A DNA stretch of 63,183 bases. Source: Stentor roeselii (lineage: Eukaryota > Ciliophora > Heterotrichea > Heterotrichida > Stentoridae). The notes beneath the pieces are model-generated. The model worked only from the letters and a program-made list of their open reading frames with translations. It was not told the DNA's origin and did no database searches. The stretch covers positions 1 to 63,183 of the forward strand of contig RSEH01000270.1 in NCBI GenBank assembly GCA_006503475.1, given 5' to 3'. Made by a program: the position numbers and the translations under genes. Positions 13,577 to 57,286 of this stretch are shown here, piece after piece (position 1 is the first letter of the stretch; each line of letters starts with the position of its first letter).

Positions 13577-14182
13577 CTAAGAATCCCTAACTTGAAGCCT
13601 CTGCATGATATCTTTAGCTCTAAGCAGTTCATGGGCCAATAAGTTAATCTGAGCAGAGCTCATAACAAGTGGTTGCTCACCTCGATCAGTTCTAACCTTC
13701 ATAGATGCAAAAGTGTTTCTAGTAACCAAATCATAATCAACTTTCCAATCAATTTTCTGAAACCTGTTGACTATCTATTCCTTACTCCTAACAAACGTCT
13801 TCTGCAATTCCAAGTTCATAGCCGAGAAATTCTCAGCATAAACCTTTCCAAGCGAGACCGCATTTTCCTGAGGAATTCCAAGTTGTGCTATTTCTTCACT
13901 TAAAACATTAGAACTAACATCAAACTTGCAAGCAGAGGTGAAAATAAAATGAACAGCAGCAAAAGCCGATTGTATTTCATCTCGATTTAATCCTGAATCA
14001 GCCGACATTTTCCAAGCTTTTTGCAAGTCAAAGTCAAGCCGAGCGATTTTCTTAGCAATTTGAAGTGAAATGAGTTTAATTCTGACAGAGTTCTAATTAA
14101 ATCTTACAAGTCTCGATAACATGTTGACTTCTGAGAAGAACCACTCAGGAGGTTCGATGTCTCCACAGAACTTAAACCGCAT
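13577..14182 (-). CDS. COMMD4: COMM domain-containing protein 4
   Basis: Three exons joined by two 15-nt introns (14093-14107 and 13771-13785) give 191 residues. The protein starts MRFKFCGDIEPPEWFFSEV, the N-terminal signature of COMMD4, has the helical HN domain, and ends with the COMM domain (about 115-190, WKVDYDLVTRNTF). COMMD4 is one of the ten subunits of the Commander complex, which works with the CCC and retriever assemblies in recycling endosomal membrane proteins. Without splicing, each intron inserts an in-frame TAG. The start is only 27 bp from the divergent start of the DHHC gene at 14210. Confidence 0.95.
13771..13785 (-). other. 15-nt intron 2 of COMMD4
   Basis: GTAAGGAATAGATAG, phase 1. 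Removal restores the COMM domain (TFVR-INRFQKIDWKVD). Confidence 0.94.
14093..14107 (-). other. 15-nt intron 1 of COMMD4
   Basis: GTAAGATTTAATTAG, phase 0, with A at position 10. Removal joins SRL to NSVRIKL. Confidence 0.93.
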
Positions 14183-14209
14183 TATTAATTATATTCCACA
14201 TTATATACA
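14183..14209. promoter_or_regulatory. 27-bp bidirectional intergenic spacer (COMMD4/DHHC)
   Basis: Only 27 AT-rich bases separate the two divergent ATGs. Any shared promoter must lie within this stretch or inside the coding regions. Confidence 0.6.
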
Positions 14210-15088
14210 ATGAGTACTATTGTAAGGAACTCGGGCTTTTCCCTGCCGCTTAACTCTCAGCAAGTTGCCAGTTGGTGTGTTGCTTTGTTCAATTTGCTTA
14301 TGAGTGCCGTGATTTTTATGCCGACTCTATCGTTGGATGGTCAGGTAGTCTTTAATTAGGTCGCTTTTGGAATAATTTTTTACATTTCACAGTTTTTGGT
14401 TGTGGTTTTCGCCGCCATCGCCACTTATATTAACCCTGCTGACCCCTTTGTTAAGGCGAAGGCTAATTCTAATGAAGCTATGGAATGTGAGATTGGACAG
14501 TCTATTTGTACTATTTGCAACTCGGTTATTTCTAATCAAAGTAAACATTGTGGAGCTTGTAATAAATGTGTGGACGCCTTCGACCACCATTGTAAATGGC
14601 TAAACAACTGCATAGGAGTCCAAAATTACAAATATTTTATCGCCCTTCTTTGGAGCTTGGAGATAAATATCATAATTCTGTTGATCTTTTCAATAGTTCT
14701 ATTTAGCGACTACAGCACTAACTTTGATTCATTCTCAGAAAGAGTAGAAAATCCTGAAGTTTATATCGCATTTATTGCTCTTACCTTCTTCGATTCGATT
14801 TTTGTGCTTATTGGATGTTCTTATCTTATTTTTTTTCATACTTATCTCAAGTGCAAAGGCATCAGCACCTTTGACTTCATTCTTTTGAAGAGGGAGAGAA
14901 AGGAAAATAAAGAAAAAGATAAAGGAAACAAGGAAACTGCTAATCAAGACCAAGAACATCGAAGAAAAGATCGAAAAAAAAGTAAGGATGTTGGATCTGC
15001 TACTCCAAGTGATAATTCCAGGGAAGATCTTGGAAGGAAGAAGGCGAAAAAGGATATTGATGATGTTGTCATTCAGTTTGAGGACTAG
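14210..15088 (+). CDS. DHHC palmitoyltransferase (ZDHHC1/11-like)
   Basis: Two exons joined over a 15-nt intron (14345-14359) give 287 residues. Exon 1 supplies the start MSTIVRNSGFSLPLNSQQV and the first membrane segment; the NGWSxPL..Q..W type of start is seen in ZDHHC1/11 relatives. The cysteine-rich domain (about 92-132) has the zinc cysteines CTIC..HCGAC..C and the catalytic DHHC at about 120-123. Two more hydrophobic pairs follow, then a Lys/Glu-rich cytosolic tail. The enzyme S-acylates cysteines of membrane proteins. It shares a 27-bp spacer with COMMD4, and a small gene begins 14 nt after its stop. Confidence 0.93.
14345..14359 (+). other. 15-nt intron of the DHHC gene
   Basis: GTAGTCTTTAATTAG, phase 0. 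Removal joins SLDGQ to VAFGIIF. Confidence 0.93.
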
Positions 15089-15102
15089 AGTTAGATATAA
15101 TA

Positions 15103-15435
15103 ATGGAATTTGATGAAACTTGCATTGAGGGGTCTTCGAAACAAATCTTGTTTGCTACTCCTGTGCAGGTATCTGGGTTTAGGAAAAAGTATTTAAGGTC
15201 TTTGTCGCCGAGCATGGCTACCAAAGCATTTAAAAAATCAATGCATGAGTCTAGCAACTTACAAGACATGATAAGTAAACTTCTAACCAGAAGACTAACC
15301 AAATCCAGAGAAGCCAAAAGAGTAAGTTCAATCCAAATGACAAACCCTCTCCCTCGAGTCCGAATGCCTCTAATAAAAAGAAACCGAGTAAAAAAGCTAA
15401 TCTTCAAAGAAAGCCTGCGTCTAAACAACCTGTAA
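15103..15435 (+). CDS. Small basic protein of unknown function
   Basis: 110 residues from the ATG at 15103 (preceded by ATAATAATG), 14 nt after the stop of the palmitoyltransferase. The second half is strongly basic (Arg/Lys-rich) and helix-prone. No membrane segment or recognised domain was seen. It is convergent with the CK2 beta gene (35 bp between stops). A lineage-specific gene is the best guess. Confidence 0.6.
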   Translation: MEFDETCIEGSSKQILFATPVQVSGFRKKYLRSLSPSMATKAFKKSMHESSNLQDMISKLLTRRLTKSREAKRVSSIQMTNPLPRVRMPLIKRNRVKKLIFKESLRLNNL

Positions 15436-15470
15436 TCTAAAACCTTTCCTTCATTAATTCATTAGAAAAA

Positions 15471-16157
15471 TTAATAAACCCTATATTTCGTATCAATCTT
15501 CAAAGAAAACGCTCCTCGTCCATTATGCACTTTAAACCCATAAATCTTCGGACAATATTCCTTATTTTCCTGAATCGGGTACAAAAACGGGAAGTTCTGC
15601 ATCAAAACATGTGGAAAAGACGACCCAAAATACGCTCCATCCAGTTCAATATTCCTGTCCTTCGGGTAATAAACATCCGAACAACGAGGACAAAAGACTT
15701 TAACCCGACTAGTCCGAATTTCATTCGACATTCCAACAGGAATCACATTGTTCTTGTCACATAAGACTCTTGGACATACTCCAAACTTCCCTGATAAGAA
15801 CTTTTCTCTCATTATTGTCAGCCCGATGGGAGTTTGAATGAATCTCGCGTGAATGAGTCCGTAAAGATCTACACAGTTTTGGTAGAGTTCTAAGTACTGA
15901 TCGTTTTGCAAGTCTTCGTCGTCAGGTACTGCACCGTTTAAGATCTGGTAAAGAGCGTCGCTGAAATTAGAGACTTTTGAAGACAGGCCGAAAAAGTTTG
16001 ACTTGTCTTTTAAGAAGTCTTCTGTTACCTCGGCTAGGTAGTCGTGACCTTCTAATGAACAGAACCATTGGGTCCAACATGATTCTCCTGAATTGTTTTC
16101 AACTTCGTTTTCTTCGATGCTGGAACTGTTGGAATCGTCGGAAAAACCTTCAGACAT
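15471..16157 (-). CDS. CSNK2B: Casein kinase II regulatory (beta) subunit
   Basis: The 228-residue protein has a Ser/Asp/Glu-rich N-terminus that looks like a CK2 autophosphorylation site, then the conserved WxxWFCSLEGHDYLAEV-type segment, the GLIHARFI helix, and the zinc finger CPRVLC ... FCPRC (about 128-160) that mediates beta-beta dimerisation. The tail ends in the GFKVHNGRG region that contacts CK2 alpha. It controls substrate choice and stability of the CK2 tetramer. The length is typical (human 215), the start is preceded by ATAAATG, and no intron is needed. Confidence 0.96.
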   Translation of the reverse strand: MSEGFSDDSNSSSIEENEVENNSGESCWTQWFCSLEGHDYLAEVTEDFLKDKSNFFGLSSKVSNFSDALYQILNGAVPDDEDLQNDQYLELYQNCVDLYGLIHARFIQTPIGLTIMREKFLSGKFGVCPRVLCDKNNVIPVGMSNEIRTSRVKVFCPRCSDVYYPKDRNIELDGAYFGSSFPHVLMQNFPFLYPIQENKEYCPKIYGFKVHNGRGAFSLKIDTKYRVY

Positions 16158-16756
16158 TTATTTGAAATTAGAAGGGCTGGGGTTTTGGTTTGGATTTTTT
16201 TTTGGAGGAGTTGGATTTGATGGTTTAGGGGAGAAGGGGAGAAGGTTTTTTGGAATTATGGAAAATTGGATGTTTTTGGTGGGGTTTTTTATTAGATGGA
16301 TTTAGTGGATTTAGGAATTTTTTTAAGTTTTTGAGAAATTTAGGTGGTTGATTTATGTGATAAACAAGTTTAAGATTTTACAGAGATTTTTTATGGTTAG
16401 ATTATAATGATGGTGAAGTGAGATGTGATTAGATTTTGCAGGATTTTTATTTTTATGTTGGTTTTGTATTCTCTGATGACATCTAATTGTTTATGAAGTT
16501 GGAAAAATTTATAAATTTTTCAGTTTTTGAATCTTTTGATAATTCAATATCTATTCCAAGTTTCTTTTTTTTCACTTTTGTATAATTTTGTTATTGACTG
16601 ATATCATAACTTCTAAAAAATTATTATCTTGAACTATATTAAATAGTTCGGATAATGAAAGAAACTAAAAATGATAAACAATAATAATGATAACATCCAA
16701 TAGCTAATAAAAACATTATAAATTCCAAAATTTCAATTTGATTTAAAAATATTATA
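16158..16756. other. Intergenic region with a G/T-rich tract
   Basis: Positions about 16165-16320 are strongly G/T-rich on the + strand (runs such as GGAGGAGTTGGATTTGATGG); this is the upstream side of CK2 beta. 16320-16756 is ordinary AT-rich sequence. No gene was seen. Confidence 0.6.
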
Positions 16757-17293
16757 ATGAATAGTTCAAATGACTCTGAAAGAAGTGACCAAGACTCTCA
16801 AAAAGACTCACAAATTCCCAGCAAAGCCAAGAAAATCTGTACCTACCTAAAATCTCATAAATTTTTAGTATCATCATTGCTATTTTGTCTAATGCTAGTA
16901 CTTTTAATATAGGATTTTATTTTTGCAGCACTGAACAAAGATTCCAACTGCAGTGAAGCAGAAAGGTAAAAAAAATTCAGTGAACTTTTCGAATATTTGC
17001 TTCTTTTCAACACTTTCTCAGTTCTTTTTGTAATGATTATAAAAAAGCTTATTTACGAGTCGCCAACCCGCAGATTGAAATGTGACGATTTCTGCAAATC
17101 GATTATTTTCACATTAATCATGATGAGCTTGTTCCTATTTTCATTAATGACTTACATTCTGCATAAGGATAATTCATCCTGCAGTAGTAAGATATTAGAC
17201 TTCATGTTTGGAATCTTCCTTCTTTATTCTATTTCAATCGCTACTTTCTTCCTCTACTCCTTAAACCACTTCATTTTTTCCTTAAACTTCTGA
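16757..17293 (+). CDS. Four-span membrane protein of unknown function
   Basis: Three exons joined by two 15-nt introns (16898-16912 and 16966-16980) give 168 residues. A Ser/Asp/Gln-rich N-terminal tail (1-30) is followed by four hydrophobic segments separated by short loops, with cysteines in the second and last loops. The layout resembles small tetraspan proteins, but no family motif is present. The stop is TGA followed immediately by TAA. Without splicing the frame is broken by TAG and TAA. It is a real gene by structure, of unknown function. Confidence 0.75.
16898..16912 (+). other. 15-nt intron 1 of the four-span membrane gene
   Basis: GTACTTTTAATATAG, phase 0. Confidence 0.85.
16966..16980 (+). 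other. 15-nt intron 2 of the four-span membrane gene
   Basis: GTAAAAAAAATTCAG, phase 2. Exon 2 is only 53 nt long. Confidence 0.85.
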
Positions 17294-17336
17294 TAAAAAA
17301 TTCTCAAATCGATAACTCTAAATAATTATAATCATC

Positions 17337-18362
17337 ATGGGCCGAAAGTCAAATCAACGCAAAACAGCTAGACCGACGCGGCAAAAGACATCCAACCTTG
17401 AAGACCTGTTGATGACATCTTCAACCTTAGACAGTTTCACCGAGCGTCGATTTTCTCCCGATTCTCTTCGAAGCCTACGTAAAGAGCTAAAAGACGCGAT
17501 AACACAAATATACAGCAAGTTCATCCAAAGGTTCATCCAAATAAAAACCCTGCGCCTAAGTCTATCCGACCCAGAAATCCAGATCCCCGCAGAAGAGTTG
17601 GTGATAGAAAAAAATTACTGTAATGAACTGACACAAAAGGTGAAACAACTAGTTCACCTCGACTCTTTGACTGAAATTTACTACACATTCTGCAAGAGCG
17701 TCATTCACTTCGCCTCACAAGTCGACTCAGAGTTAAAAAGTCTTCCATTGTGCAACTTGACTCGAATGGCCTGCATATTAGAAGCTTATCAAGTGATGTT
17801 AAACTCAGCAAGGGAACTCAGTAAAGTCACAAGCGGGATTTTTGAGAACCAGCCAAGTCACGTCACTTGTGAAACTGTCACGAAACTTGCATTTTTTGAA
17901 TATGTGCTCAAAAATTTTACGATTATTTTCACACAGTGTGAAGAAAATTTGATGGTTTTTAAAGTCAGGATGATTGAAAAAGAACTTCAGGAACTTAGTC
18001 GAATTGTTAATGGACTTAATAGGGATAATCATGCTGGAGCTAAAGTTCTGCCTAGTGTTTGTCAGACTGATAAAAGTTTAGATGAAATTGTCAGCTTTAT
18101 TAATGGAAGGGATGAGAAGAAGAATAGGAGGAGAAGGGTTAGTAAAGCTTCAACTGCTGAAACTTCGGGATCGCCTTCAAGGCATCGATCTTTGGATATG
18201 CTTTGGAGGGATGAAGAGGATCATGGAAATTCAATGGATAATGAAATCAGAGAGTTTCAGGCAAAGTTGGAAAGTGCTGAACCACTGTTAAAGAGACTGA
18301 AACCAAGTTTGTCTGAAGAATGGCTAAAGAAAATAAGAAGTCAAATCATTAAGAGTGATTAA
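17337..18362 (+). CDS. Alpha-helical protein of unknown function
   Basis: 341 residues. The N-terminus is basic and low-complexity (MGRKSNQRKTARPTRQ). The middle (about 55-250) is helix-rich with scattered Cys and Leu but no repeat I can name. A basic RRRR-type patch lies at about 262-270, and the C-terminus forms a charged helix. No known domain was recognised. The start follows 43 nt after the stop of the membrane gene, on the same strand. Confidence 0.75.
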   Translation: MGRKSNQRKTARPTRQKTSNLEDLLMTSSTLDSFTERRFSPDSLRSLRKELKDAITQIYSKFIQRFIQIKTLRLSLSDPEIQIPAEELVIEKNYCNELTQKVKQLVHLDSLTEIYYTFCKSVIHFASQVDSELKSLPLCNLTRMACILEAYQVMLNSARELSKVTSGIFENQPSHVTCETVTKLAFFEYVLKNFTIIFTQCEENLMVFKVRMIEKELQELSRIVNGLNRDNHAGAKVLPSVCQTDKSLDEIVSFINGRDEKKNRRRRVSKASTAETSGSPSRHRSLDMLWRDEEDHGNSMDNEIREFQAKLESAEPLLKRLKPSLSEEWLKKIRSQIIKSD

Positions 18363-18700
18363 TTATTACACTTATATTATTTCGGTTAATTAGGTGTATT
18401 TTATCATTTTCATGTGTTTTGGTCTAGAATATACTTCAAGAAAGTGATTAGGTTGATAAATATAGAAGAAATTAATAAATAAAAAGTGTAATTCAAAATG
18501 AAGCGGAGTAGTCCAAAATATCATCTAAATGCTATATACTGAAATGTATGAGGATGAAATAAGAAAATCACAAAAACCTTCAATAACTAATACACACAAA
18601 ACCATTTAATGATAAAATCACAATATTCATTAAATTGTAATATATACGAAAATCCTTTTATATAACCAACATTTTTTTGGTCGATTAAAGTCTTCAAAGT
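18363..18700. other. Convergent intergenic region
   Basis: About 340 bp of AT-rich sequence between two convergent stops. Nothing recognised. Confidence 0.6.
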
Positions 18701-19054
18701 TTACCCTCTTCTAGCAATAAAGTAATGTTTTTTATCATAAATTCCGCCTGATTTTCTTTTCTGATTAGTTCGAATCCCACTACAAATTTTATCATTTTCT
18801 TTAATTTCTTCATTCTTTGCATCACCTTGTGAGAATTCAGAAGTAAAAATTCTTTCTTCTGCAATTTTTATTTGTTCACTGGAAGATGTTATCATTGAAG
18901 CTCGAAATTTTTCAATATCTGGAGGTTCAAACATCATCCGAATATTTGACTCTTTTAATCTTTCCTTACTTTCTTCCATATCAATGACTTCCAAGTCTTC
19001 TTCATCTTTGGGGACTTGTCCTTGTCCAATACAAGAGCAGTGTTTGCATCCCAT
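18701..19054 (-). CDS. Small protein with an MGCKHCSC acylation-type N-terminus
   Basis: 117 residues. The start MGCKHCSCIG has Gly2 and several nearby cysteines, the pattern of N-myristoylation followed by S-palmitoylation. The rest is acidic and disordered with a basic tail, with no recognised domain. It may be a membrane-tethered signalling or scaffold protein (inference). Its start is only 12 bp from the divergent start of another MGxxC protein at 19067. Confidence 0.7.
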   Translation of the reverse strand: MGCKHCSCIGQGQVPKDEEDLEVIDMEESKERLKESNIRMMFEPPDIEKFRASMITSSSEQIKIAEERIFTSEFSQGDAKNEEIKENDKICSGIRTNQKRKSGGIYDKKHYFIARRG

Positions 19055-19066
19055 TAAGTATTATTA
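19055..19066. promoter_or_regulatory. 12-bp spacer between divergent start codons
   Basis: TAAGTATTATTA lies between two divergent ATGs. It is too small for two conventional promoters, so transcription signals must overlap coding sequence or be extremely compact. Confidence 0.6.
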
Positions 19067-19363
19067 ATGGGAAACAACTGCTGTGGAAATCGTCACAAAA
19101 AACCCGAAAACGACGATCATTCAACCGACTGGACCACCAGAAACACAACAAAAGACTCCCCTTCCACCAAGTCGATTCCACCCTCAATGGAAAAAACAGG
19201 TGAATGTCCCTATTGCAGTTCAAAGATCCAGATTCCGTTTAACCTAAAATACCTAGAATGCAGCCACTGCAAAGAAAAGTCAATGCAAGACGGCTGTACA
19301 ACAACCCTTTACAAGTAACCCTTAATCAGACTTCCACTAGGTCACTGTCTACGTCAGTCCTAA
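19067..19363 (+). CDS. Small zinc-ribbon-like protein with an MGNNCC acylation-type N-terminus
   Basis: A 15-nt intron (19315-19329) gives 93 residues. MGNNCC fits dual acylation (Gly2 myristoylation, Cys5/6 palmitoylation). After a disordered Thr/Ser-rich region comes a probable zinc ribbon, CPYC ... CSHC (about 47-69), followed by further cysteines in the spliced tail (LPLGHCLRQS). Function unknown. It is divergent from another MGxxC gene 12 bp away and followed after 38 bp by a CTD-type phosphatase. A fusion with that phosphatase was considered and rejected because the only joining intron would be 17 nt and lack the GTA start. Confidence 0.72.
19315..19329 (+). other. 15-nt intron of the MGNNCC gene
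   Basis: GTAACCCTTAATCAG, phase 2. It extends the protein by 10 residues. Confidence 0.78.
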
Positions 19364-19401: not shown

Positions 19402-20814
19402 ATGTCAAAGAAAACCGCTTTGGTCAGCGGGAAAGTCCCAAAACCAACAAATTTTTCAAACCAACGTTCAAATCAATACCTTTCCCATTCCGACACCTTT
19501 CTCCCGGCAGCGAGTCCTCCTCAACCAAAAAAGTTCTTCATCAACCTGCAAGACTTAGTGAAAATCGAGGAGATCCTTTCAATACTAATAGAAAAAGTGA
19601 CCCAAAAAGAAAGTGCAAGTGAAGAATGTGAGAACTGGTGGAAAATCACTGATGAAAACTCTATCATTCATATCGACTCACTATTCAAAAAACCGGAAGT
19701 GAGGCAAAGTCTTCGAGAAGCTGTGATACTTGAAGCGGTAGGGGTGACCACTGTTGAGTATCTTGATCATTCAGCACTTGGCAATGACCGCACTCGAAAT
19801 GCACTTATTGAGATGCTTGAAGTGATTCATCAGAATATCTTAGTCCTCATCGATGTCGTCCTTCATCGCCTGCCGAACTCGTATTCGACTAACTCCTGGG
19901 CAGTAAAGCTTCAGACAATAACTTACCAAAAACGAAAGACAAAATGTTCAAAATACGAAAATGTTCATCTTTTACAGCAACAAAACGTGAAAATCAAAGA
20001 AAAAATACAAGAAATGGCTCATGAACATACAAATCCAGGAGCAGTTCTTACGAAATCTGTTAGAAGTCTTTTGTTCTTGATTATTCAAGTTGTTAGAGAA
20101 ATTGAAAATTTTGAAGTTGTTTTGGCGAGGGATAAACTTCGAAATGCGATTTGTGAAGAAATTGAACCGCCTTTGTTGAATACTACTGAGTCGGTTGATT
20201 ATGATGGGGAACTACCCTCGGTCAAGCCGCCTTTTCTGCCTGTGTCGAGAGGACCTGGGTACACCTTGGTACTTGACTTGGATGAGACTTTAGTGCATTA
20301 CTTCGAGTTGGCTGGGGAAGGAAATTTTTTGGTCAGGCCTGGGTGTAAAGAGTTCCTGGAAGAAGCTTGCAAACATTATGAAGTCGTTATTTTTACTGCG
20401 GCGCTTCAGGATTATGCTGATTGGGTACTTGATCAAATTGATCAACCTGGATGTATTTCACATCGGCTTTATAGACAACATGCGATTCCTGCAGGAAATT
20501 ATTATATTAAGGATCTTTCGAGGATTGGAAGGGATATGGCTAAGGTTATTATTGTTGATAATGTTGCGGAAAACTTTCAAATGCAACCTGATAATGGAAT
20601 TTTGATTAGGTCTTGGTTTGATGACCCTCATGATAATGCTCTGCTGGAACTTTTACCCCTTTTGAAAGGTATGATGTAAGTAGAGATCTCGGTTAAGAAG
20701 GTTAGAGATGTTAGGAAAGCACTTCAAAACTTTAGGGATCAGATGTTGAGACTTATTTCTAGAGGAGTACCAAATCCGCATTTGAATTTGCGTTTAGAGG
20801 ATGGATGTCTTTGA
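19402..20814 (+). CDS. FCP1/SCP-type (HAD) phosphatase, larger form
   Basis: Two exons joined over a 15-nt intron (20669-20683) give 465 residues. The N-terminal 270 residues are helical and unrecognised. The catalytic domain has LVLDLDETLVH (DxDxT, about 287-297), FLVRPGCKEFL, VVIFTAALQDYAD, SHRLYRQH, the KDLSRIGRD loop, VIIVDNVAENF and NGILIRSWFDD. It belongs to the CTD small phosphatase/Dullard class acting on phospho-Ser/Thr. The intron interrupts the last helix; splicing adds KKVRDVRKAL and a short tail ending at TGA 20812-20814. ATG 19402 is preceded by TTTAATG. The window contains another intact member (8957-9943) and a possible dead one. Confidence 0.9.
20669..20683 (+). other. 15-nt intron of the larger CTD-type phosphatase
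   Basis: GTATGATGTAAGTAG, phase 1. It restores about 43 C-terminal residues. Confidence 0.88.
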
Positions 20815-26646: not shown

Positions 26647-27402
26647 CTAAAGTTCTTCTTTGTCATCATTAATAAGACTTTCAGGAGATCTCTTAGGTTT
26701 AGAACTAGTAACATCCTCATCATCCTCTCCAGTAAACTTATTCATGACCTTCTGATACTTTTCCTTCATTTCCCACCAAGTATGAACATTATTCGGTTTC
26801 CTTCCCTTCATCGGTTTAGGCCAAGCACTATCTTCCTTTTTCTTCAAATTCACATTTAACCTTCCAACAGAAGTAAAAGAATAACTGCTTTCCTCCGCAT
26901 TAATCTGAGTATAAAATTCCATTTCCAAACTAAGCCGAATTCTCTGAGTACTTCTTGCACAATTAGCAGTAAAAGTCAATTTACTTTCCGTGATTTGCAC
27001 TTCAGGATTAGTAACTTCCAAACAACCCGGCGAGTCCAACCGATGAGAAAACTTGACATCCAAGAAAATCATTGACGGCGACTGCGCCCATTGATAAGCC
27101 GGAGAAACGACTTGCATTGTTGAGGAATGTTCCAAGGCTGTTATGAACTTTTCTAACTTTCGCTTTAAGGCTAAAGCGTTTACTTTCAGTGATGGGTCGA
27201 TTTGGACTTCTTGCTCCACTGCTTTGATTACGAGTTGAATTCCTGCATCGTACCAGCCTAAATCTTGACAGCTTTTTATGCATCTGAATAAGGTTTACTC
27301 GTTTGTTGGAGAGAAGGAATTTGATGATATTGCAGAGAGAAGAGATTCTTCTGAGTCTAGAGGACAGCTTAGGGATTGAGTCAGAAACAGCAAAAGGAAC
27401 AT
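26647..27402 (-). CDS. ER-lumenal CS-domain (p23-like) protein with C-terminal KEEL
   Basis: A 15-nt intron (27284-27298) joins a first exon encoding a signal peptide (MFLLLFLTQSLSC) to the main frame, giving 246 residues. After a cysteine-containing helical segment comes a CS domain (about 105-200), starting PAYQWAQSP and ending in KKKEDSAWPKPM, the fold of p23, HACD3 and NudC. The C-terminus is acidic and ends DDKEEL. A signal peptide plus KEEL predicts a soluble ER-resident co-chaperone. CS-domain proteins are usually cytosolic, so this location is unusual. The frame upstream offers no ATG without the intron. Confidence 0.85.
27284..27298 (-). other. 15-nt intron of the CS-domain gene
   Basis: GTAAACCTTATTCAG, phase 2. 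It joins the signal-peptide exon to the body of the protein. Confidence 0.87.
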
Positions 27403-28746: not shown

Positions 28747-30030
28747 TCAACACAACAAATTTTTATGAGTCCTGGGGACAGGCATAGTATCTCTAACATT
28801 GCTGAGTCCAGTAATAAAAAGTAAAAGTCTTTCAAATCCAAGTCCAAATCCAGCATGTTGCATAGTTCCATACTTCCTCAACTCAAGGTACCATTTGAGT
28901 TCATTTTTATCAGGCACAACTTTTTCCAAATAATCAAGTCTCTCTTCCCTGACACTTCCACCAACGACTTCCCCGACTCCAGGAATAACAAGATCAAAGT
29001 TATCAGCAAATCCATTATTTTTCTTCATATAAAAAGGTGTGATTTCAGCAGGATAATTTCTAATAATAACAGGCGCTTTGAAATGCTGGTCCTACTTATT
29101 TCCTACCACAAGCCATCTTTCCTCTTCAGTCGAAAGTCCAACCTCATTCTTCCCAGTAAGTCTTTTCGCATCATCATACTTAATAACTTCCCATTTTTTC
29201 CCAATAATTTCCTCAAGTACTTCTTTTTTCCTTTCTAAAATCACTAAATCATTTGAATTATTTTTCAACAAATGAGAAACGGTTTCTTTAATCAAGTCCT
29301 CCGCAAGTCCAAAAGTTTCTTCAAGTGAAAAATGGACCATTTCAGGTTCAACCATCCAGAACTCAGCAAGATGTCTTTGAGTATGAGACTTCTCAGCTCT
29401 GAAAGTCGGTCCAAAAGTATAAATCCTTCCAAGTGAACTTGCGAAAATCTCTCCATGAAGTTGTCCTGAGACAGTTAAAAATGCTTTTTTTCCGAAGAAG
29501 TCTTCAGAGTCTTTGATTTCGAACATTTCTCCAGCCCCTTCGCAGTCATTTCCAGTGATGACTGGAGTGTGAATGTAGTAAAAGCCTGCTTTGATAGTAC
29601 CTTGTCTACGGAAATAATCGTGAATCGCAAAACTTGACTCGGATCGCAGTCGAAGAGAAGCCGCGATTGTTTCTGTTCGAGGGCGAAAATGAACGCAGTC
29701 TCGAAGGTGCTCGAATGAATGGGCTTTCTTTGCGAGAGGATATTCCTTTATGGATTTTACCATGTCGCTTGTACCTAAGGTTATTATTGAGTCACCTTGA
29801 AGCTCTAATGCTTTTGGACCCTGGACTATGCAACCTGATACCTCTATTGAACTACCTGTTACTAGAGAAGGGACTTTTTCTGATGGCATCACGATCTGCA
29901 GTTTACCGGAACCGTCGTCTAACTCGATAAATGTGAACTTTTTTTGACTACGTACTGTGCGAACCCATCCTGAAAGACGAACCGATGTTGAAGGAAGATT
30001 GGCTAAGATAAACCCAATCCTGGTCAACAT
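28747..30030 (-). CDS. Asparaginyl-tRNA synthetase, bacterial/organellar type
   Basis: Two exons joined over a 15-nt intron (29092-29106) give 422 residues. The N-terminal OB-fold anticodon-binding domain (about 15-95, SGWVRTVRSQKKFTFIEL) is followed by a class II core: HFRPRTETIAA, HTPVITGNDCEGAGEMF (motif 2 region precursor), FGPTFRAEKSHTQRHLAEFWMVEPE (given here only as FGPTFRAEKSHT), and motif 3 GFGLGFERLL near the end. Splicing restores ERWLVDQHFKAPVII, matching the family exactly. CVHFRPRTE and NDCEGAGE are typical of bacterial and mitochondrial AsnRS, so it probably serves mitochondria. No clear targeting peptide is present. It ends with TGA at the length expected for the family. Confidence 0.95.
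29092..29106 (-). other. 15-nt intron of the AsnRS gene
   Basis: GTAGGAAATAAGTAG, phase 0. Removal gives ERWLV-DQHFKAPVII, which fits the AsnRS family without a gap. Confidence 0.96.
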
Positions 30031-32358: not shown

Positions 32359-33318
32359 ATGGAGTCCAAAGAGACCCGAGTAAAATTCCTGACACTCAAC
32401 TTATTCCTTCGCCCTCCTCCTATCAGTACAAACGAAAGCGATTATAAAGACCAACGCGCTCAATACTTCGCCTCCTCATTTCTTTGCAGATATGATATCG
32501 TATGTCTTCAAGAAGTATTCAGTGCCTTATCAAACCGTCGAAAGCGCATCCTAGAAAAAGCCTTTGAATTCAAATTTCGTTACATCGCAGAAAGTCCAGA
32601 CCCTCCTTTAATGTCCGGTTGTGTTTTAGACTGCGGGGTGTTAATCCTAAGCAAATTTCCAATAATCGAACAAGATTTCTTCCCTTATCAAGAGTCTTTA
32701 CACCCAGATCGATCAACTTTTAAAGGTTTACTTTATGCAAAAATAGACATTAATGGCTCAGTGCTCAATGTTTTCACTTCTCACCTTCAATCAAAGCATC
32801 CGACAAGTAGCAGTAAAAAGTATCTTGATTATAGACTAATTAGAAGGACACAGCTCAGAGAAATTTCAGAGATTGTCGCTTCGAAAGTTAGAAATGGGGA
32901 AAGTGTTGTTATTGCTGGAGATTTAAATGTTGATGGACGAGAAGAACTCAAACCTCCACCTTTTCCAGTATTTTGCAATTAGGATATTGTTCTTGATGAT
33001 TATCAGTGCATGGTTAGCATTTTGAATCAAGCTTTTCCTTTTGTTGATGTACTTAGGAATAAGTTTGGTCAGACACCTGCTACTTTTGGAAGAATTGGGG
33101 AAGACGGAAAACCTCTTGAAACTGTTTTAACCAAGGACGATCAAACAATGTGGGATGAAGGTCTCGACCACATTTTCTTCTACTCAGAAGGCAACAGCGA
33201 GATAGACTGGGACCAGGTGAAAGTAGAGCCTTTTTACACACCCCGACAAGTTTTCACTCAAATCAGTGACCACGCCGGAGTGCAGGCAGCATTCAAATTT
33301 CTAAAATCGACTAACTAA
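32359..33318 (+). CDS. Endonuclease/exonuclease/phosphatase-family enzyme, neutral sphingomyelinase-like
   Basis: A 15-nt intron (32968-32982) gives 314 residues. The motifs of the DNase I-like fold are in order: LTLNLF near the start, VCLQEVF (metal-binding Glu), GVLILSKFP, FTSHLQSKHP, AGDLNVDG (Asp/Asn pair) and SDHAGVQA near the end (catalytic His). The LILSKFPI..F and HLQ segments fit bacterial-type and SMPD2-like sphingomyelinases, which cleave sphingomyelin to ceramide. There is no C-terminal membrane span as in SMPD2. Other DNase I-fold phosphodiesterases remain possible. Confidence 0.85.
32968..32982 (+). other. 15-nt intron of the sphingomyelinase-like gene
   Basis: GTATTTTGCAATTAG, phase 0. 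Confidence 0.93.
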
Positions 33319-33333: not shown

Positions 33334-34026
33334 ATGTCTGAAAGGTGCATCCTATGTAACGAGTGTACAGGAGACAAGTTCCAAGTAACCAAAAAATAGA
33401 CTAAAAGTCTTTGCCTCTCATGTAAGCGAAAAATCATAAAAACGAATTCACAGTCCTCAGAATGGTTTTATTCGAACACAGATTCAAACACAGTCTGCGA
33501 GTACTGCTACGAAAAACCATCAAAAATCGCCCTTTCCGGGAGCAGTTACTCAATAATCTGCCTCGAATGCTCAACTCACTTCGACACAATCATTCCAATT
33601 CACTGGCTGAACCTGATCCAATCAACCCGAAATCCATTAATTTATGAAGAACGTTTAATCCAGTTGAACCAAAACTTCAACCCAGCAAGAGAAGGTATCT
33701 TAGCTTCAATAACCGACGTCATTTTTGAGTTAAACAAACTTTACAACTTTGTTATTAAAGAAATCGACTCGAATGAGGAAAAAAATCTGAAAATTTTACA
33801 AGATTTTGAAAAGAAAATATTAGAAAAGTCAAACGACCTTCAACAGAACTTACCTTCGAGCTGGAGTGAAGAGATGCAGATTTTCACTGTGAATCTCGAG
33901 TCTTATCTTTCAGACATGGTCTCGACAGACCTCCTCCAGCCGAACGAATTAGAAAAGTTGATAAAAGAGAAGGTAAAACTAGAGATCAGTCAAACAGACG
34001 ATTTTTCTTATCTCTTAGCAGATTAA
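33334..34026 (+). CDS. Protein with four CxxC pairs (zinc-binding) and a helical tail
   Basis: A 15-nt intron (33385-33399) gives 225 residues. The N-terminal 75 residues have four CxxC pairs (CILC, CLSC, CEYC, CLEC) suited to two zinc ions, with a B-box/RING-like spacing but not a clear match. The C-terminal 140 residues are acidic and helical, probably coiled coil. TRIM-like proteins share this order (zinc module then coiled coil), but I cannot assign it. Its stop is 7 bp from the stop of the convergent TPR gene. Confidence 0.78.
33385..33399 (+). other. 15-nt intron of the CxxC gene
   Basis: GTAACCAAAAAATAG, phase 0. It joins the first and second CxxC pairs. Confidence 0.88.
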
Positions 34027-34033: not shown

Positions 34034-34819
34034 TTACAGTGACCGCTTCAAAGGCATGGTCTTTAAATTGTCATAAGGACTGTTCCGTCCTGTGTAGACC
34101 CTGACAGGTGTCAGGTCCGCTCGAGACTTTTTAATCCTGGGAAGTGTGGGCGTGACAGAAGGAAAGCGACGATGTCCTTTCTCAGAAAAATCATGAATTT
34201 TTTCCTTTATTCTCCCTTTTTTCCCGATTTTCTCTAAAGTTGCTTCAAGACTTCTAGTCATCGGGTGGTTGTTTCCAAGTTCTTTACAAATAGAATAAGC
34301 TTGAGAGTAATGACTGTAAGATTCTTCAAATTTTCCAAGATATTCCAACTCGACTCCTGAGTTGTAATAAGATATCAACAAGTTACTTAAAACTCTTCCG
34401 CTTACTGGATGGTCTTTACGCGCTTTTTCTAAAAATTCAGTCGCTTTTTGAGAGTGGATTATTGCTTCTTCGTGCCGTTTTAAACTTGATAAAATTGCGC
34501 AAATGTTTAAGTGGGATGAGGCTAATGCTGAACTTTCAGCATTTAACTCGATTTCTAGCTCTAAAGAACGTTGGAGATATGAAAGGGCTACTAACGGCTT
34601 CTTGCTTTTTTTGTAGTAACAGCCGAGGTTGTTGAAGGTGATGCTGAAGAGCTTTAAACGTTTTGGCATGAAGTCGGAATCTTCGTTATTAAGGATGTTT
34701 TCTGCTTTTTTTAGTAATTTGAAAGTGTCTTTGAAGTTTTCGAGGAGGAGGTAGTCCATTGCAACTTTGTTTAAACGGAGGATGACTGTCTCGATATCTG
34801 TTAGTTCCTCTTCTGTCAT
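34034..34819 (-). CDS. TPR-repeat protein
   Basis: 261 residues. At least three tetratricopeptide repeats (about 55-195) are visible: FNNLGCYYKKSKKPLVALSY, then SHLNICAILSSLKRHEEAI, then YYNSGVELEYLGKFEESYSHY. The C-terminal 50 residues are basic and disordered. Such proteins are scaffolds; the partner is unknown. The start ATG is 61 bp from the divergent gene at 34881. Confidence 0.85.
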   Translation of the reverse strand: MTEEELTDIETVILRLNKVAMDYLLLENFKDTFKLLKKAENILNNEDSDFMPKRLKLFSITFNNLGCYYKKSKKPLVALSYLQRSLELEIELNAESSALASSHLNICAILSSLKRHEEAIIHSQKATEFLEKARKDHPVSGRVLSNLLISYYNSGVELEYLGKFEESYSHYSQAYSICKELGNNHPMTRSLEATLEKIGKKGRIKEKIHDFSEKGHRRFPSVTPTLPRIKKSRADLTPVRVYTGRNSPYDNLKTMPLKRSL

Positions 34820-35925: not shown

Positions 35926-36216
35926 ATGGTAAGCTTTACATAGGGTAAAGGCACACCGAGTTTTGGTAAGAGACACAGCCACACTCATACTCTTTGCCGT
36001 AGGTGTGGCAAAAGAGCTTTCCATAAACAGACAAAAGTGTGCGCTTCTTGCGGCTTCCCTGATACGAAAATGAGACATTTCAACTGGGCTCACAAAGCCA
36101 CTAGACGAAGAGGTGTCGGAACTGGCAGAATGAAGTATTTGAAGAATATTCCTAGAAGAGCCAAGAATGGATTTAGGGCTGGCACCACTCCTAAGCCCAG
36201 GGTTCAGCAGAAATAA
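35926..36216 (+). CDS. RPL37: 60S ribosomal protein eL37
   Basis: A 15-nt intron lies directly after the ATG (35929-35943), giving 91 residues that start [22 protein letters not shown]. The zinc ribbon CRRC ... CASC, the HFNW segment, GTGRMKYLK and the [10 protein letters not shown] ending identify eL37 clearly. It sits near the peptide exit on the large subunit. Splitting a ribosomal protein gene right after its start codon is known from other eukaryotes. The start is 23 bp from a divergent gene, so this highly expressed gene must use a very compact or internal promoter. Confidence 0.97.
35929..35943 (+). other. 15-nt intron of eL37, immediately after ATG
   Basis: GTAAGCTTTACATAG, phase 0. 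Exon 1 is the start codon only plus the 5' leader. Confidence 0.96.
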
Positions 36217-48929: not shown

Positions 48930-48930
48930 A

Positions 48931-52709: not shown

Positions 52710-52903
52710 GGTCTTGAATTTCAAGAATCTCATGAAGTTAATTTTAAAAGAATTCAAATACTGAAAATATTTAATAATACATATATTAAGTTATAATTAG
52801 CTACACACTGGTAAAACAAGAATTCTTAGCTGTTGATATGCAATAGTCATAAATCTTTAATCTAAGAAAAATCTAAAATTCTATAATTTTACTTTTTCTA
52901 ATT

Positions 52904-53332
52904 CTAGACTTTGTGATTACTCATTTCATCTTGCACAGAATCATGTATCTTTTTATGAAGTTCAACTAATTCGTTAATCATATCCCAACGATTTTCCTCT
53001 AAACAATGAATCACAGTTCTAATGACATACTTCTTACACTCTGGTTCAATTTTCACAAAAACCTCTCCTATTCCATCAGAAAGCTTCTGCTGATAAATCT
53101 CTTTCCACATAGGATCACGATAAGGATAGAGATCAGCGATAGTAAGCGTTAAAATGCTTTCAAAAATGCAAAAATCCTTGAAATCAATCGAAAAGAAATT
53201 AGTTTTAAACTCGCAGTTCAATTTGGGGTAATCTTCAAATGGCTGAAAAGCGATAACAAAGCTTTTATCTTCATTTTTCCCAACAACATTAAAAAACCTC
53301 TCTTTAAGTCTATCCTGCAAATTGACTTCCAT
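52904..53332 (-). CDS. Small protein of unknown function
   Basis: 142 residues from the first in-frame ATG at 53332; the open frame continues upstream only to a GTG. Mixed alpha/beta composition with several aromatic and Cys residues; no membrane span and no recognised domain. Its start is 48 bp from the divergent RPF1 start. Confidence 0.65.
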   Translation of the reverse strand: MEVNLQDRLKERFFNVVGKNEDKSFVIAFQPFEDYPKLNCEFKTNFFSIDFKDFCIFESILTLTIADLYPYRDPMWKEIYQQKLSDGIGEVFVKIEPECKKYVIRTVIHCLEENRWDMINELVELHKKIHDSVQDEMSNHKV

Positions 53333-53380
53333 TACCTTTATATCAAAATTCAACTCTTCACAGTAACCCACTTACTATTA

Positions 53381-54319
53381 ATGGTAAAGCAAAAAGAGTC
53401 CTCAACATCCTCACTCAAAAAAGCGATACCATGGGTGAAAAATCGTTCACGTAAGCTCCAAATGATGCTACAGCTGAAATTCGAGTTAAAAAAGCAAAAA
53501 AAGCAAGAAAGACTTCAACGCAAGCAAGACCGAGCCTCAAAAGGCCTTCCAGTACTTTCCAAATAGCCTTTAAAGCCACGGACGATAGAATCAATGCGAG
53601 AAGCTGAAGACTCTCTCGTGACCGAAGACAATCCGGAGGTAAAAATCGACGAGTCTCTCGACGAGTTCTCCAAATACTACTCAGGCGAAGTCTCTCCTAA
53701 AGTCCTTCTAACAACCAAAAAAAACTCATCACCGAAGTTAATCTCCTTCTGCAACGACCTGATCGGAGTGATTCCAAACCTCGAGTACTACGACCGTCAA
53801 CAGTTCACAGTTTCAGAAATCATCGAATTTGCGAAAAATCGAAATTTCACAGACTTGCTGATATTCAGTGAAAGGCTTAAAAAACCTGATGGACTTTGCA
53901 TGGTTCATCTTCCTGATGGCCCCACTGCACATTTCCGAGTTTCGAACTGCTGGAAACGAAAAGAAATCCCTAATCACGGAAACCCGACAGGGTATAACCC
54001 GGAGTTGATCTTGCAAGGGTTCGATACTCGCCTCGGTCAAAGAATCGCGCGGATGTTCATGGCGCTCTTTCCGCAAAGGCCGGAATTTCGAGGAAGATGT
54101 GTTGTTACTTTGAAGAACCAACGAGATTTCTTGTTTTTTAGACATCATCGGTACTTGTTTAAAGATGAGGGAAGAAAAGTCATTTTGCAGGAAGTCGGAC
54201 CTAGAATGACTTTGAAACTCAGGAGACTTGAACAGGGCACTTTTCAAGGAAAACATGCAAAACAGGAGTTTTTGTATCAGCCGAACATGCAGGTCAGCCG
54301 AAAGAAGTTCTTTTTATAG
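53381..54319 (+). CDS. RPF1: Ribosome production factor 1 (Brix domain)
   Basis: Two exons joined over a 15-nt intron (53552-53566) give 307 residues. Exon 1 is basic (KKQERLQRKQDRASKGLP) and joins to PLKPRTIESMREAED, the PRTIE..RE motif of RPF1. The Brix domain (about 100-290) shows PKVLLTT, DFTDLL, HLPDGPTAHF, RLGQRIARMFMALFP and FFRHHRYLF. The end is the QEVGPRMTLKLRRLEQGTF segment (quoted partly). RPF1 works in 60S subunit assembly, in 27S pre-rRNA processing. Its stop is 12 bp from that of UNC119. Confidence 0.96.
53552..53566 (+). other. 15-nt intron of RPF1
   Basis: GTACTTTCCAAATAG, phase 0. Confidence 0.95.
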
Positions 54320-54331
54320 ATTAGGCCTAAA

Positions 54332-54874
54332 CTAACTTAAGGGAGAGTAGTTGTATTCTGCCTTGTTGTGCATTATCAGCTTGTTTTCGACGAAGTAAAA
54401 ACTGTCTGATTTTGTCTCCCATGGAGCACCGATCATCTCGGCTTTTACACTCTCTGGAAGACTTGGAATCTCGTATATCACCTCCCAAGTGTTACGGGTA
54501 CCTGGAATGCAGAATTCTAGGTTGAAGTCGAAACTTTTTAGAAGGGTTGAACGGAAGTAATGACGCTCGATCATTCGGAAGTTTCTTACTTCTTTTCCTC
54601 CCACTTTAAAGCCAATGGTACTACCCAAAGCAGTCAAGTTCAAGAAATCCGGTCCCAAGTGGTACTTAATAGTGCGAATAGAGTCATCCTCAGGCAGATC
54701 TTTAACTTCTTCATCATCCGAATTCTCAACTTCAAATAAAGTCGTTCCACTTTCCAAGTCCCTAACCTTGAAATAAACAAACTCGATTCCATAAACATTA
54801 GCAGCCAAGGGACAAAGAAACCTATCAGTAGCTTCAGTTAATGAACTTACGTATTGCGGACTGATATCTTCCAT
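54332..54874 (-). CDS. UNC119: UNC119-type lipid-binding chaperone
   Basis: 180 residues of the GMP-PDE delta/UNC119 beta-sandwich. Visible blocks are FKVRDLESGTTLF, then NFRMIERHYFRSTLLKSFDF, FCIPGTRNTWEVIYEIP and SDSFYFVENKLIMHNKAEYNYS (each quoted to at most 20), as in UNC119 rather than PDE6D. UNC119 extracts N-myristoylated proteins from membranes and delivers them to cilia, with release by ARL3. It has a short N-terminus without the disordered extension of animal UNC119. It starts 14 bp from the stop of the DYRK gene on the same strand. Confidence 0.96.
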   Translation of the reverse strand: MEDISPQYVSSLTEATDRFLCPLAANVYGIEFVYFKVRDLESGTTLFEVENSDDEEVKDLPEDDSIRTIKYHLGPDFLNLTALGSTIGFKVGGKEVRNFRMIERHYFRSTLLKSFDFNLEFCIPGTRNTWEVIYEIPSLPESVKAEMIGAPWETKSDSFYFVENKLIMHNKAEYNYSPLS

Positions 54875-54888
54875 TTATTAAAAACACA

Positions 54889-56358
54889 TTATTTCTTCCT
54901 GAAAGTCTTCTTCAAAGCACTAGCAACAAAGCTTTTCCCGACTTCTCTAATCCAAGGATGGTTCAAAGCATCTTCAGGGCTAATTCGATTCCCAGGGTTC
55001 CAGTCAAGACATCCTGACTACTTCTTACTTTTAACGAGATCCACAAAGCTCGGGTCTTTATTGACAAGGACATCCTCCAGTCTGCGACTGTCGGGGATTC
55101 TTAATTTTCCAGTGGGAGTAGCAGCGTTTTTTATTTTTCCTTTCGGGCCTAAAAACTTCTTCGCTTTCAACCCGCTTTCAATTAAGTCAATAGGCGGGTG
55201 TCCGATGACTTCAATGATTGCATTGAGCTGGTCTTCCTCGTTTTCACTGATAAAAAGAGGTGAGCCTGTCGACAACTCAACCAAAATGCACCCAAGAGAC
55301 CAGATGTCAATGGCAGCAGTGTAAGGAACTCCTAAAATCACCTCTGGGGCTCTATAAATACGACTTTGGATGTAATAGTAAATCTTTTCCTCCTCGAAAC
55401 AAGATGAACCGAAGTCAATCAACTTGATGGCAGACTCGTAAGGGTTGACCAAGGCAATGTTTTCTGGTTTCAAGTCGCAGTGAATCACGCGACTTTGCCT
55501 TAAAATCGACAAGGCTGTTAAAAGCTGAACACAAAAACGACGGATTAAACCACTTGAAAAACCTTTAAAACTATTTGCTTTCAGCAGGTCGTAAAGAGTG
55601 AAACTTAGAAGTTCGAAGACTATGCAAAGATGTTTACGGAACTTGAAACTTGCGAGGACGTTGACAAAATTTAAAGCAGTTCTTTTTTCAGCTTCTTTTT
55701 TAAGGTAAAAAAGGATTTTTAACTCGGTTTGGGACTGTTTCAGGTACTTTTTCGAACTTTTGATGATTTTCACTGCGACTTCTCGCTGTAGTTTGTGGTC
55801 CCAGCACTTGATGACCTGCGCAAAGGACCCGGAGCCGAGGACTTCAAGGATTTCGTATTGGAAAGCGATGTGGTCTCCAGGGACTATCGCGTAATGAGTG
55901 TGGATATCATCGAAACCGTTGTTCTTTAAATTAGCGTCAGGGATGATTTTATTGCTTTTCAGTCCCACATAGTAAATCTCGTCGTATTCTGCCATTTCGC
56001 ATAGTTCAAACTTACTCAAAGTCCCTGAAAACAAGTCTATTGCCTTATTGTAAGGCAAGGGCAATAAATGCTCTCCTGGCGTCAATTTGTTGATTCCTGT
56101 CGTTTTATTAGGAGATATTTGTCTTTTCAGTTTTTTTAACTTTTTCTTTGAAGACAGGCCGAATGTAGCTCGAGGGGACATGCCTTTTAGCTTGACTGTT
56201 AGTTTTGATGATGAATTGTTAGTCAGGATCGAGTTTGAATATGGGGAAACTACTGAGTCTGTGAGTTTCAATGGTGTGAACTGGTTTTGTGAAGTGATTT
56301 TGCTTAGCTTCGGGTTTTTACTTGAACTGCGGTGTTTTGGACTGAGACTCTTAAGCAT
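54889..56358 (-). CDS. DYRK-family protein kinase
   Basis: A 15-nt intron (55014-55028) restores the last 46 residues (RCLDWNPGNRISPEDALNHP), giving 484 residues. After a basic, serine-rich N-terminus (1-150) comes a complete kinase domain (about 165-465): LGSGSFAQV, VAVKII, HCDLKPEN, DFGSSC, and the activation loop YYIQSRIYRAPEV with the conserved YxQSR tyrosine that DYRKs autophosphorylate. DYRK2/Pom1-type kinases act in cell polarity, division and cilia. Without splicing it would lose the end of the catalytic domain. Confidence 0.95.
55014..55028 (-). other. 15-nt intron of the DYRK gene
   Basis: GTAAGAAGTAGTCAG, phase 1. It completes subdomain XI and the C-terminus. Confidence 0.95.
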
Positions 56359-56398
56359 TAGATAATAAAGCTTACACTATGAATTAGCTAAAATTAAC

Positions 56399-57286
56399 TT
56401 AGTTCCCTGGGGAAAACAGGTCAGAAATACTCTCTTTTTTCACGAAAGAGTCATTCATTCTCCCTCTGTGAATGTCATCTGCTACATCTTGTGAGATTTT
56501 CGAGGCATTCGTACTAAGGACGTTACCTGACTTCTCACTAGAAATAACATAAACCATAATTTCCCCACTATTCGAATGTAAAAGTATCTGATATCTTTCT
56601 TTTTCTTCCGGTGGAAATGACTCAGGATTAGGCACTTCTAAGTTAGTTCCAGGTGGAGCTCTAATAGCCAAAAGAGTTTCATTGGCACATTCAGTAAGAT
56701 TAGGTAAATTCCTGATATCATCATAAGTCACATAAGCATATTCAGTATAATCCGGATTTTTCGTAAGATTCGCAAGGCTCTCCTGTATCTGGCTAGTCCA
56801 ATAATCAAGTTTCTTCTCTTCCTCATTCAGTGCTTCTAGTTCCTTGGTCAATGCAGTACTTTCACACAAGTACGGTTCTTCATTGTCATTAGAATTTCCG
56901 ATCCACTGAATCTTGTTCTTATGTTTCTTCTGAATCAAGCCAATCCCTTCTAAAACATTCGTGATGTCGTAAATTCTGCGCTTTTGGACTTGCAACTTCT
57001 AAATAACAAGTACCTCGACCGCGTCGTTCAAGTCGATGCACTTGTTTTCAGAGGACTGGATCAGAGACACGAACTTCTTGGTCAGGACTCCTAAAGAGTT
57101 GTCCATTCGACCTGAATGGCCACCGTCGCCCTTTTTGGATGAACCGTTCCGACCTGGATATTTTTTACTTTTTCGCTTGTTTGGTGAAGGGTTTTCCTCG
57201 TCGTCGCACTCGAACTCGTCTTCGGAGTAGTAGTCTTCTTCTTCTTCGTCTTTGACCTTACGTTTGCGTAATCGGGAGGAGTTCAT
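56399..57286 (-). CDS. E2F-type transcription factor
   Basis: Two exons joined over a 15-nt intron (56999-57013) give 290 residues. An acidic, disordered N-terminus (1-60) is followed by the winged-helix DNA-binding domain (about 62-125), which the intron cuts: [40 protein letters not shown]. The leucine-zipper/marked-box dimerisation region (about 135-245) follows. The C-terminus ESISDLFSP resembles the retinoblastoma-binding core xxxDLF of E2Fs. It should pair with a DP protein and control S-phase genes. The stop is 40 bp from the DYRK start. Confidence 0.94.
56999..57013 (-). other. 15-nt intron of the E2F gene
   Basis: GTACTTGTTATTTAG, phase 0. It interrupts the DNA-binding domain. Confidence 0.95.

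What the first reader, a model, noticed from the sequence alone, without database searches (positions are those of the whole stretch)
13771..57013. Fifteen introns of exactly 15 nt, with an invariant A at position 10
Every splice I could establish removes exactly 15 nt: GTA at the 5' end, A at position 10 in 15 of 15, and TAG or CAG at the end. They restore conserved blocks in COMMD4, AsnRS, eL37, RPF1, DYRK and E2F. This is seen in the sequence and matches the published 15-16 nt introns of Stentor. All those found carry an in-frame stop if retained, partly because broken frames are how I found them. Stop-free 15-nt introns could be hidden inside frames that look intact.
Basis: partly seen in the sequence, partly recalled or inferred. 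Interest (0 to 1): 0.75.

Follow-up and report, generated by a model that had tools for sequence, protein, structure and literature searches.

The report
Fixed 15-nt introns, mostly stop-carrying
This stretch comes from a Stentor-like ciliate whose genes are cut by tiny introns of exactly 15 bases, a kind already known, and the sequence suggests that most of them are kept carrying a stop signal so that an intron left in by mistake would end the protein early.

Summary
On 263 kb of this genome (window plus 20 stretches), a gene model allowing any GT-AG length peaks only at 15 nt. A length-by-length scan gives 37 candidates at 15 nt and 2-9 at each of 20 other lengths; all 37 have A at position 10, though this was not required. 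Length-shifted motif counts suggest about 5,260 such introns in the 44.4-Mb genome. The type is published for Stentor coeruleus. Stop-free introns exist: 29586-29600 in the AsnRS gene is one, with a 5-residue insertion at the same place in relatives at 68-69% identity. But they are scarce: the class lacking both built-in stops is about 4.5-fold depleted genome-wide, and stop-free sense copies show no excess (12, against a mean of 11.4 at other lengths), where about 36 more would be expected if stops were neutral. Best reading: ordinary spliceosomal introns locked at a multiple of three, with selection keeping a stop inside. No RNA data were available.

The parts
13771..13785 (-). 15-nt intron, phase 1, second intron of a COMMD4 gene (13577-14182)
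   Evidence: retained form leaves a 6-residue gap against human COMMD4, with the exact edge ambiguous
14093..14107 (-). 15-nt intron, phase 0, first intron of the COMMD4 gene
   Evidence: 5-residue gap in 2 of 2 COMMD4 chains
14345..14359 (+). 15-nt intron, phase 0, DHHC palmitoyltransferase gene (14210-15088)
   Evidence: frame and motif; outside the DHHC match
16898..16912 (+). 15-nt intron, phase 0, gene of unknown family (16757-17293)
   Evidence: frame and motif only; no Pfam family
16966..16980 (+). 15-nt intron, phase 2, same gene
   Evidence: frame and motif only
19315..19329 (+). undecided 15-nt candidate, phase 2: splicing would add 10 residues to the small gene 19067-19318
20669..20683 (+). 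15-nt intron, phase 1, NIF-type phosphatase gene (19402-20814)
   Evidence: junction lies inside the NIF match of the spliced protein, gaps not examined
27284..27298 (-). 15-nt intron, phase 2, gene of unknown family (26647-27402)
   Evidence: frame and motif only; no Pfam family
29092..29106 (-). 15-nt intron with a stop, phase 0, AsnRS gene (28747-30030)
   Evidence: junction aligns without a gap in 3 of 3; the ORFs of P0001, P0003 and P0004 end there as VGNK, VSSK, VKLN
   Evidence: 5-residue insertion against 3 of 3 solved relatives shown and 9 of 12 aligned relatives; the other 3 have five residues there too
32968..32982 (+). 15-nt intron, phase 0, endonuclease/exonuclease/phosphatase gene (32359-33318)
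   Evidence: junction inside the Exo_endo_phos match, gaps not examined
33385..33399 (+). 15-nt intron, phase 0, gene of unknown family (33334-34026)
   Evidence: frame and motif only; no Pfam family
35929..35943 (+). 15-nt intron, phase 0, directly after the start codon of ribosomal protein eL37
   Evidence: alignments to solved eL37 start right after the intron; Ribosomal_L37e from residue 2
53552..53566 (+).
   Evidence: frame and motif; outside the Brix match
55014..55028 (-). 15-nt intron, phase 1, DYRK kinase gene (54889-56358)
   Evidence: 5-residue gap against DYRK2
56999..57013 (-). 15-nt intron, phase 0, E2F gene (56399-57286)
   Evidence: spliced protein matches E2F_TDP 64 to 64; retained form gaps 4 residues in E2F4, none of that size in E2F8

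Best explanation
These are ordinary U2-type spliceosomal introns of a heterotrich ciliate, fixed at 15 nt: GTA is the 5' splice site, A10 the branch point, YAG the 3' splice site, and the lariat loop would be about 10 nt. Because 15 is a multiple of three, a retained intron never shifts the frame, so only a stop inside it can expose the unspliced mRNA. Most introns carry such a stop, built into the splice sites: TAG at the 3' end in phase 0, TAA or TAG from GTAA/GTAG at the 5' end in phase 2. I infer that selection, probably through nonsense-mediated decay, has removed most stop-free introns and left a minority. Shown from sequence: length, A10, stop content, depletion of stop-free forms, and a stop-free example with an insertion at the same place in relatives. 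Inferred: splicing itself, use of A10 as branch point, and decay as the selective agent. I hold the intron reading at about 0.97 and the selection reading at about 0.75.
For: 15 nt is the only length peak and A10 is 37 of 37 unforced. Genome-wide counts 10,648 at 15 nt against 5,290 at 14 and 5,484 at 16. Boundaries at 6 window introns fit homologues. U1, U2 and U6 genes carry ACUUACC, GUAGUA and ACAGAGA. Scarcity of stop-free introns: odds ratio 0.22 (0.06-0.42) for the class lacking both built-in stops, and about 36 (22-66) stop-free introns expected if neutral against no excess seen (12 against a mean of 11.4). In phase 2, -3 is C in 7 of 11, and in phase 0, +4 is C or T in 11 of 19, so neither TAG nor GTAA/GTAG is simply demanded by splicing. 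A UPF1 domain is present.
Against: No RNA evidence. The tool's own control for the motif (read backwards) gave 10,180 against 10,648 forward; I set it aside because at 14 and 16 nt it exceeds the forward count more than twofold. Splice-site compensation could produce part of the odds ratio. The neutral expectation rests on only 34 introns and assumes independent positions. At least one, probably two, stop-free introns are real, and 7 of 12 stop-free sense hits were never tested by homology.
Confidence: 0.8

Rival explanations
1. The introns are real but the stops are incidental: splice signals favour GTAA and TAG, weak 5' sites are paired with strong 3' sites (compensation), and finding introns by broken frames does the rest.
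For: An odds ratio below 1 between +4 and -3 is also what compensation would give; every intron of the gene model carries a stop by the way it was found.
Against: Stop-free copies were counted separately, in sense frames, and show no excess. Phase 0 copies ending in CAG number 5, against about 2.5 at the four other 3n lengths and 2.8 in codon shuffles, where about 19 more would be expected; compensation does not predict a phase-specific shortage. In phase 2, CAG is the commoner end, 7 of 11.
Confidence: 0.17
2. Conserved stop-free introns such as the AsnRS one are regulated: retention adds five residues and makes a second protein form.
For: The AsnRS insertion is stop-free here and in P0003 and P0004.
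Against: The five residues differ between relatives (TIKAG, MKHLG, TFHSG) and agree only where the intron motif demands it. Phase 1 offers few places for a stop, so persistence by chance suffices.
Confidence: 0.05
3. The segments are not introns but real coding insertions, sequencing errors or frameshift sites.
For: No transcript data; 8 of 14 window introns rest on frame and motif alone.
Against: A fixed 15-nt length does not mend a frameshift; the motif is the same across unrelated genes and enriched only at 15 nt; spliced forms fit homologues.
Confidence: 0.02

Closest known systems
Stentor coeruleus 15-16 nt introns (PMC9505925: abstract and sections 1, 2.1, 2.2, 2.5 read; Slabodnick et al. 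2017 not held)
   Same: 15 nt, GTA...AG ends, A10, AT-rich, few introns per genome, standard code, canonical U1/U2/U6 motifs
   Different: 16-nt introns are 7.19% there; here at most a small class (+194 over the 14-nt count, about two standard errors). PMC9505925 holds none of the words stop codon, in-frame, nonsense or retention. Species identity not established.
Blepharisma stoltei 15-16 bp introns (PMC9942806, passages only)
   Same: Heterotrich tiny introns
   Different: Blepharisma reads UGA as tryptophan; here TGA ends genes (16 of 149 model genes)
Selection against translatable introns in Paramecium (PMC11334263, passages) and Nyctotherus (PMC2633312, passages)
   Same: Stop-free introns with a length divisible by three are rare; in Nyctotherus 3 of 40 stop-free introns against 60 of 105 with a stop have such a length
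   Different: Paramecium mainly avoids lengths divisible by three; here nearly every intron has one, so only sequence can carry the safeguard

Membership tests
Heterotrich (Stentor-type) tiny spliceosomal introns | length 15 nt as the dominant class | tested here: met
   and genome-wide 2, 34, 35
Heterotrich (Stentor-type) tiny spliceosomal introns | GTA...AG ends and A at position 10 | tested here: met
   A10 37 of 37, GTA 33 of 37
Heterotrich (Stentor-type) tiny spliceosomal introns | a minor class of 16 nt (7.19% in S. coeruleus) | tested here: inconclusive
   +194 over the 14-nt count, about two standard errors; one plausible local case of 5 candidates
Heterotrich (Stentor-type) tiny spliceosomal introns | major-spliceosome snRNAs with canonical recognition motifs | tested here: met
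   U1, U2, U6 found with motifs; U4, U5 and the minor-spliceosome RNAs were not searched
Heterotrich (Stentor-type) tiny spliceosomal introns | removal from mRNA | not testable with these tools
   no RNA data
[quoted passage not shown]
Selection against translatable introns (Paramecium type) | avoidance of lengths divisible by three | tested here: not met
   nearly every intron is 15 nt
Selection against translatable introns (Paramecium type) | nonsense-mediated decay of retained forms | not testable with these tools
   UPF1 zinc-binding domain present; decay itself not tested

The most novel reading that the evidence does not exclude
The genetic code sets how a ciliate guards against retained introns. 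Where UAA and UAG are stops (this genome, Stentor, Blepharisma, Nyctotherus), the splice sites themselves (GTAA/GTAG, TAG) can supply the stop, so introns can sit at a length divisible by three, even be locked there. Where only UGA is a stop (Paramecium, Tetrahymena, Stylonychia, and Loxodes in part), splice sites cannot supply it and such lengths are avoided. Phase 1, which has no built-in stop, is the weak spot where stop-free introns persist across species. Against it: in Tetrahymena one ultra-short class (22-44 bp) is overrepresented at 3n lengths and poor in stops, though its authors suspect annotation artefacts (PMC5014332, passages).
Probability: 0.35. Interest if true: 0.62.

Novelty: new member of a known kind. 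Interest (0 to 1): 0.42.

Why it matters
Fifteen-nt introns stand at the short end of all intron sizes cited in the papers I saw, and at a fixed 15 nt the length itself cannot protect against intron retention. If the stop content is kept by selection, the splice-site sequences of a whole genome become readable as a record of mRNA quality control. In practice, ORF-based gene finding in heterotrichs will keep five spurious residues wherever a stop-free intron lies; the database AsnRS copies P0001, P0003 and P0004 and the EMC2 copy P0121 do so. I met no report of stop content in heterotrich introns in the listings of searches or in the passages read, but the Slabodnick 2017 paper and the supplement of the Blepharisma paper were not readable here, so it may be in print.

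Tried and rejected
34405-34419 (-), stop-free, phase 1: rejected as an intron, because the TPR_12 match runs over residues 100-152 to profile 3-56 with no room for a five-residue insertion. 57154-57168 (-), stop-free, phase 1, in the E2F N-terminus: not testable, it lies before the conserved domain. 10910-10924 (+): a weak model with GTT and AAG; not supported. 18525 (intergenic) and 14699 (antisense): no conserved or long open frame when spliced. 20989, 54498, 59967, 60217, 62704: antisense to model genes, not examined further. A position-weight score did not separate stop-free introns from background: the supported AsnRS intron scores -1.08, reached by 36% of background. PP2C hit on L018: inconclusive, the two alignments shown do not cover it. 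Of the 12 stop-free sense hits, I tested 3 with relatives (AsnRS, EMC2, L012), 1 with Pfam (34405) and 1 with solved structures (PP2C); 7 were not tested. I chose the three partly because they looked intron-like or conserved, so they are not a random sample. Codon shuffling as null gave 16.9 expected (sum over phases) against 12 seen; I rely on the length controls, mean 11.4, or 13.0 at the four 3n lengths. Counts differ with gene-model settings and must not be mixed: 36 of all lengths, 37, 38, 34 of those 38 with the full motif, 32 after low-scoring genes were dropped. Species not identified; S. coeruleus would be about 83 Mb (recalled) against 44.4 Mb here. In one search only the best 120 of 8,000 scored proteins were listed, and I aligned 12 of them.
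Full report
WHAT WAS CHECKED. The window is contig C197 of a 44.4-Mb assembly in 522 contigs. The code looks standard: open frames with all three stops closed reach 1,249 residues, 16 of 149 complete model genes end in TGA, and in 135 scored kinase domains (of 1,346 first-look candidates) the 13 in-frame stops, in 12 domains, are TAG (10) or TAA (3), never TGA.

LENGTH. I wrote a codon-usage gene model and ran it on the window plus 20 stretches of 10 kb (263,183 bases). With every GT-AG length from 9 to 80 nt equally allowed it chose 36 introns, 15 of them 15 nt long; no other length was chosen more than 3 times. Allowing one length at a time, 15 nt gave 37 and each of 20 other lengths (10-14, 16-30) gave 2-9; GTA with A at -6 occurred in 33 of the 37 and in 0-2 at each other length. 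A10 was not required in that run, yet all 37 had it. Counting the bare motif with no gene model gave 78 at 15 nt and 25-52 at the other lengths from 11 to 24. Genome-wide, both strands: 10,648 at 15 nt, 5,290 at 14, 5,484 at 16, an excess of about 5,260. The tool's own control, the motif read backwards, gave 10,180 at 15 nt, which speaks against an excess; but at 16 and 14 nt the backward pattern gave 13,723 and 10,958, more than twice the forward counts, so it is not matched in composition. A 16-nt class is at most small: +194 over 14 nt, about two standard errors. Introns sit early in genes (18 of 27 in the first half), and 24 of 149 complete model genes have one, close to the 18-20% quoted for Stentor and Blepharisma (PMC10946202, passages).

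Fourteen are supported and one (19315) is undecided; each is in the parts list. Homology places six: COMMD4 intron 1 (5-residue gap in 2 of 2 chains) and intron 2 (gap of 6), DYRK (5), E2F (gap of 4 in E2F4 and none of that size in E2F8; the spliced protein matches E2F_TDP 64 residues to 64 positions), eL37 (alignments start right after the intron) and AsnRS 29092 (no gap across the junction in 3 of 3). Of ten spliced proteins scanned, eight match Pfam families over the cut-off and two match none. Eight introns rest on frame and motif.

STOP-FREE INTRONS EXIST. At 29586-29600 (-) the motif lies in phase 1 inside an open AsnRS frame. Its five residues are an insertion against 3 of 3 solved relatives shown. 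Of 12 relatives aligned, 9 lack it and 3 keep five residues there: P0001 (99% identical), P0003 (68%) and P0004 (69%), reading TIKAG, MKHLG and TFHSG. These differ except where the motif, read in phase 1, demands agreement. The same three ORFs end at the next intron (29092) as VGNK, VSSK and VKLN, which is what a phase 0 intron of the motif ending in TAG would give. A second case is EMC2 on L022:2837-2851 (+), phase 0: gaps totalling 5 residues in the 3 EMC2 chains shown, all probably the same human protein. P0122, P0125, P0128 and P0129 lack the five residues, the near-identical P0121 has them, and five other relatives do not cover the site. A third, L012:689-703 (-), phase 0, is only compatible: P0132, P0139 and P0140 read VIFKQ, VIFTQ and VISKQ where this genome reads VSLNQ, but no relative lacking the segment covers it. 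A fourth hit, 34405, is not an intron; PP2C is inconclusive; seven of the 12 hits were not tested.

BUT THEY ARE SCARCE. In 179 model genes (68,667 codons), stop-free sense copies of the motif number 12 at 15 nt, against 4-17 (mean 11.4) at 12 other lengths from 12 to 24; at the four other 3n lengths they number 8, 11, 16 and 17. From the composition of 34 stop-carrying introns, with position 4 taken from phases 0 and 1 and position -3 from phases 1 and 2, about 36 (bootstrap 22-66, 60 resamples) stop-free introns would be expected beside them if stops were neutral. Genome-wide, classes by +4 (R or Y) and -3 (C or T) at 15 nt are YC 1,432, YT 1,941 and RC 3,390, and RT 3,885 by subtraction; YC at 16 nt is 1,294. 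With background shares from 626 local hits at other lengths, the YC excess is about 137 where independence predicts about 618, odds ratio 0.22 (0.06-0.42). YC is the class with neither built-in stop. Splice-site compensation could give the same sign, but it does not predict the shortage of phase 0 copies ending in CAG: 5 seen, about 2.5 by chance at the other 3n lengths, about 19 more expected.

MECHANISM. U1, U2 and U6 genes carry ACUUACC, GUAGUA and ACAGAGA, so recognition is probably ordinary; U4, U5 and minor-spliceosome RNAs were not searched. UPF1 zinc-binding domains are present at 8 places, one at 198.9 bits. The step from stop to decay is inference; selection against translatable introns through decay is described for Paramecium (PMC11334263, passages). 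In Nyctotherus, which stops mainly at UAA, 3 of 40 stop-free introns have a 3n length against 60 of 105 with a stop (PMC2633312, passages). Loxodes depletes 3n introns (mode 17 bp), while heterotrichs are quoted at about 95% of 15 bp (PMC11441545, passages). Together these suggest the code-dependent strategy given as the novel case; it is a comparison across published summaries, not a test.

VERDICT. By sequence evidence the introns are real and of a published kind; the species could not be named. What is added is a measured scarcity of stop-free introns in a genome locked at a 3n length, with one well-supported exception in the window and one or two outside it.

Noticed in passing
window 3558-4145: Tandem array of a 150-bp unit, 3.9 copies, 91% matches, inside a long open gene 2551-5958 whose product begins with a signal-like, cysteine-rich stretch.
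   Followed up: no
G000, (C52, C515, C90 twice, C49, C505 twice, C1): Eight places match the UPF1 zinc-binding domain; one scores 198.9 bits, the other seven 52-83 bits, so UPF1-like proteins seem multiplied.
   Followed up: no
window 28747-30030 (-): The AsnRS is of a bacterial type: apart from a few unnamed relatives, the named best hits are bacterial; an organelle or transferred gene is possible.
   Followed up: no
L011:8296-8310 (+); L014:4706-4720 (-); L023:8509-8523 (-): 15-nt candidates with GTG or GTC instead of GTA but with A10; two end in TAG and look like real introns.
   Followed up: no
L019:1053-1068 (+): A single plausible 16-nt intron, GTA start and A at position 11, among 5 candidates of 16 nt.
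   Followed up: no
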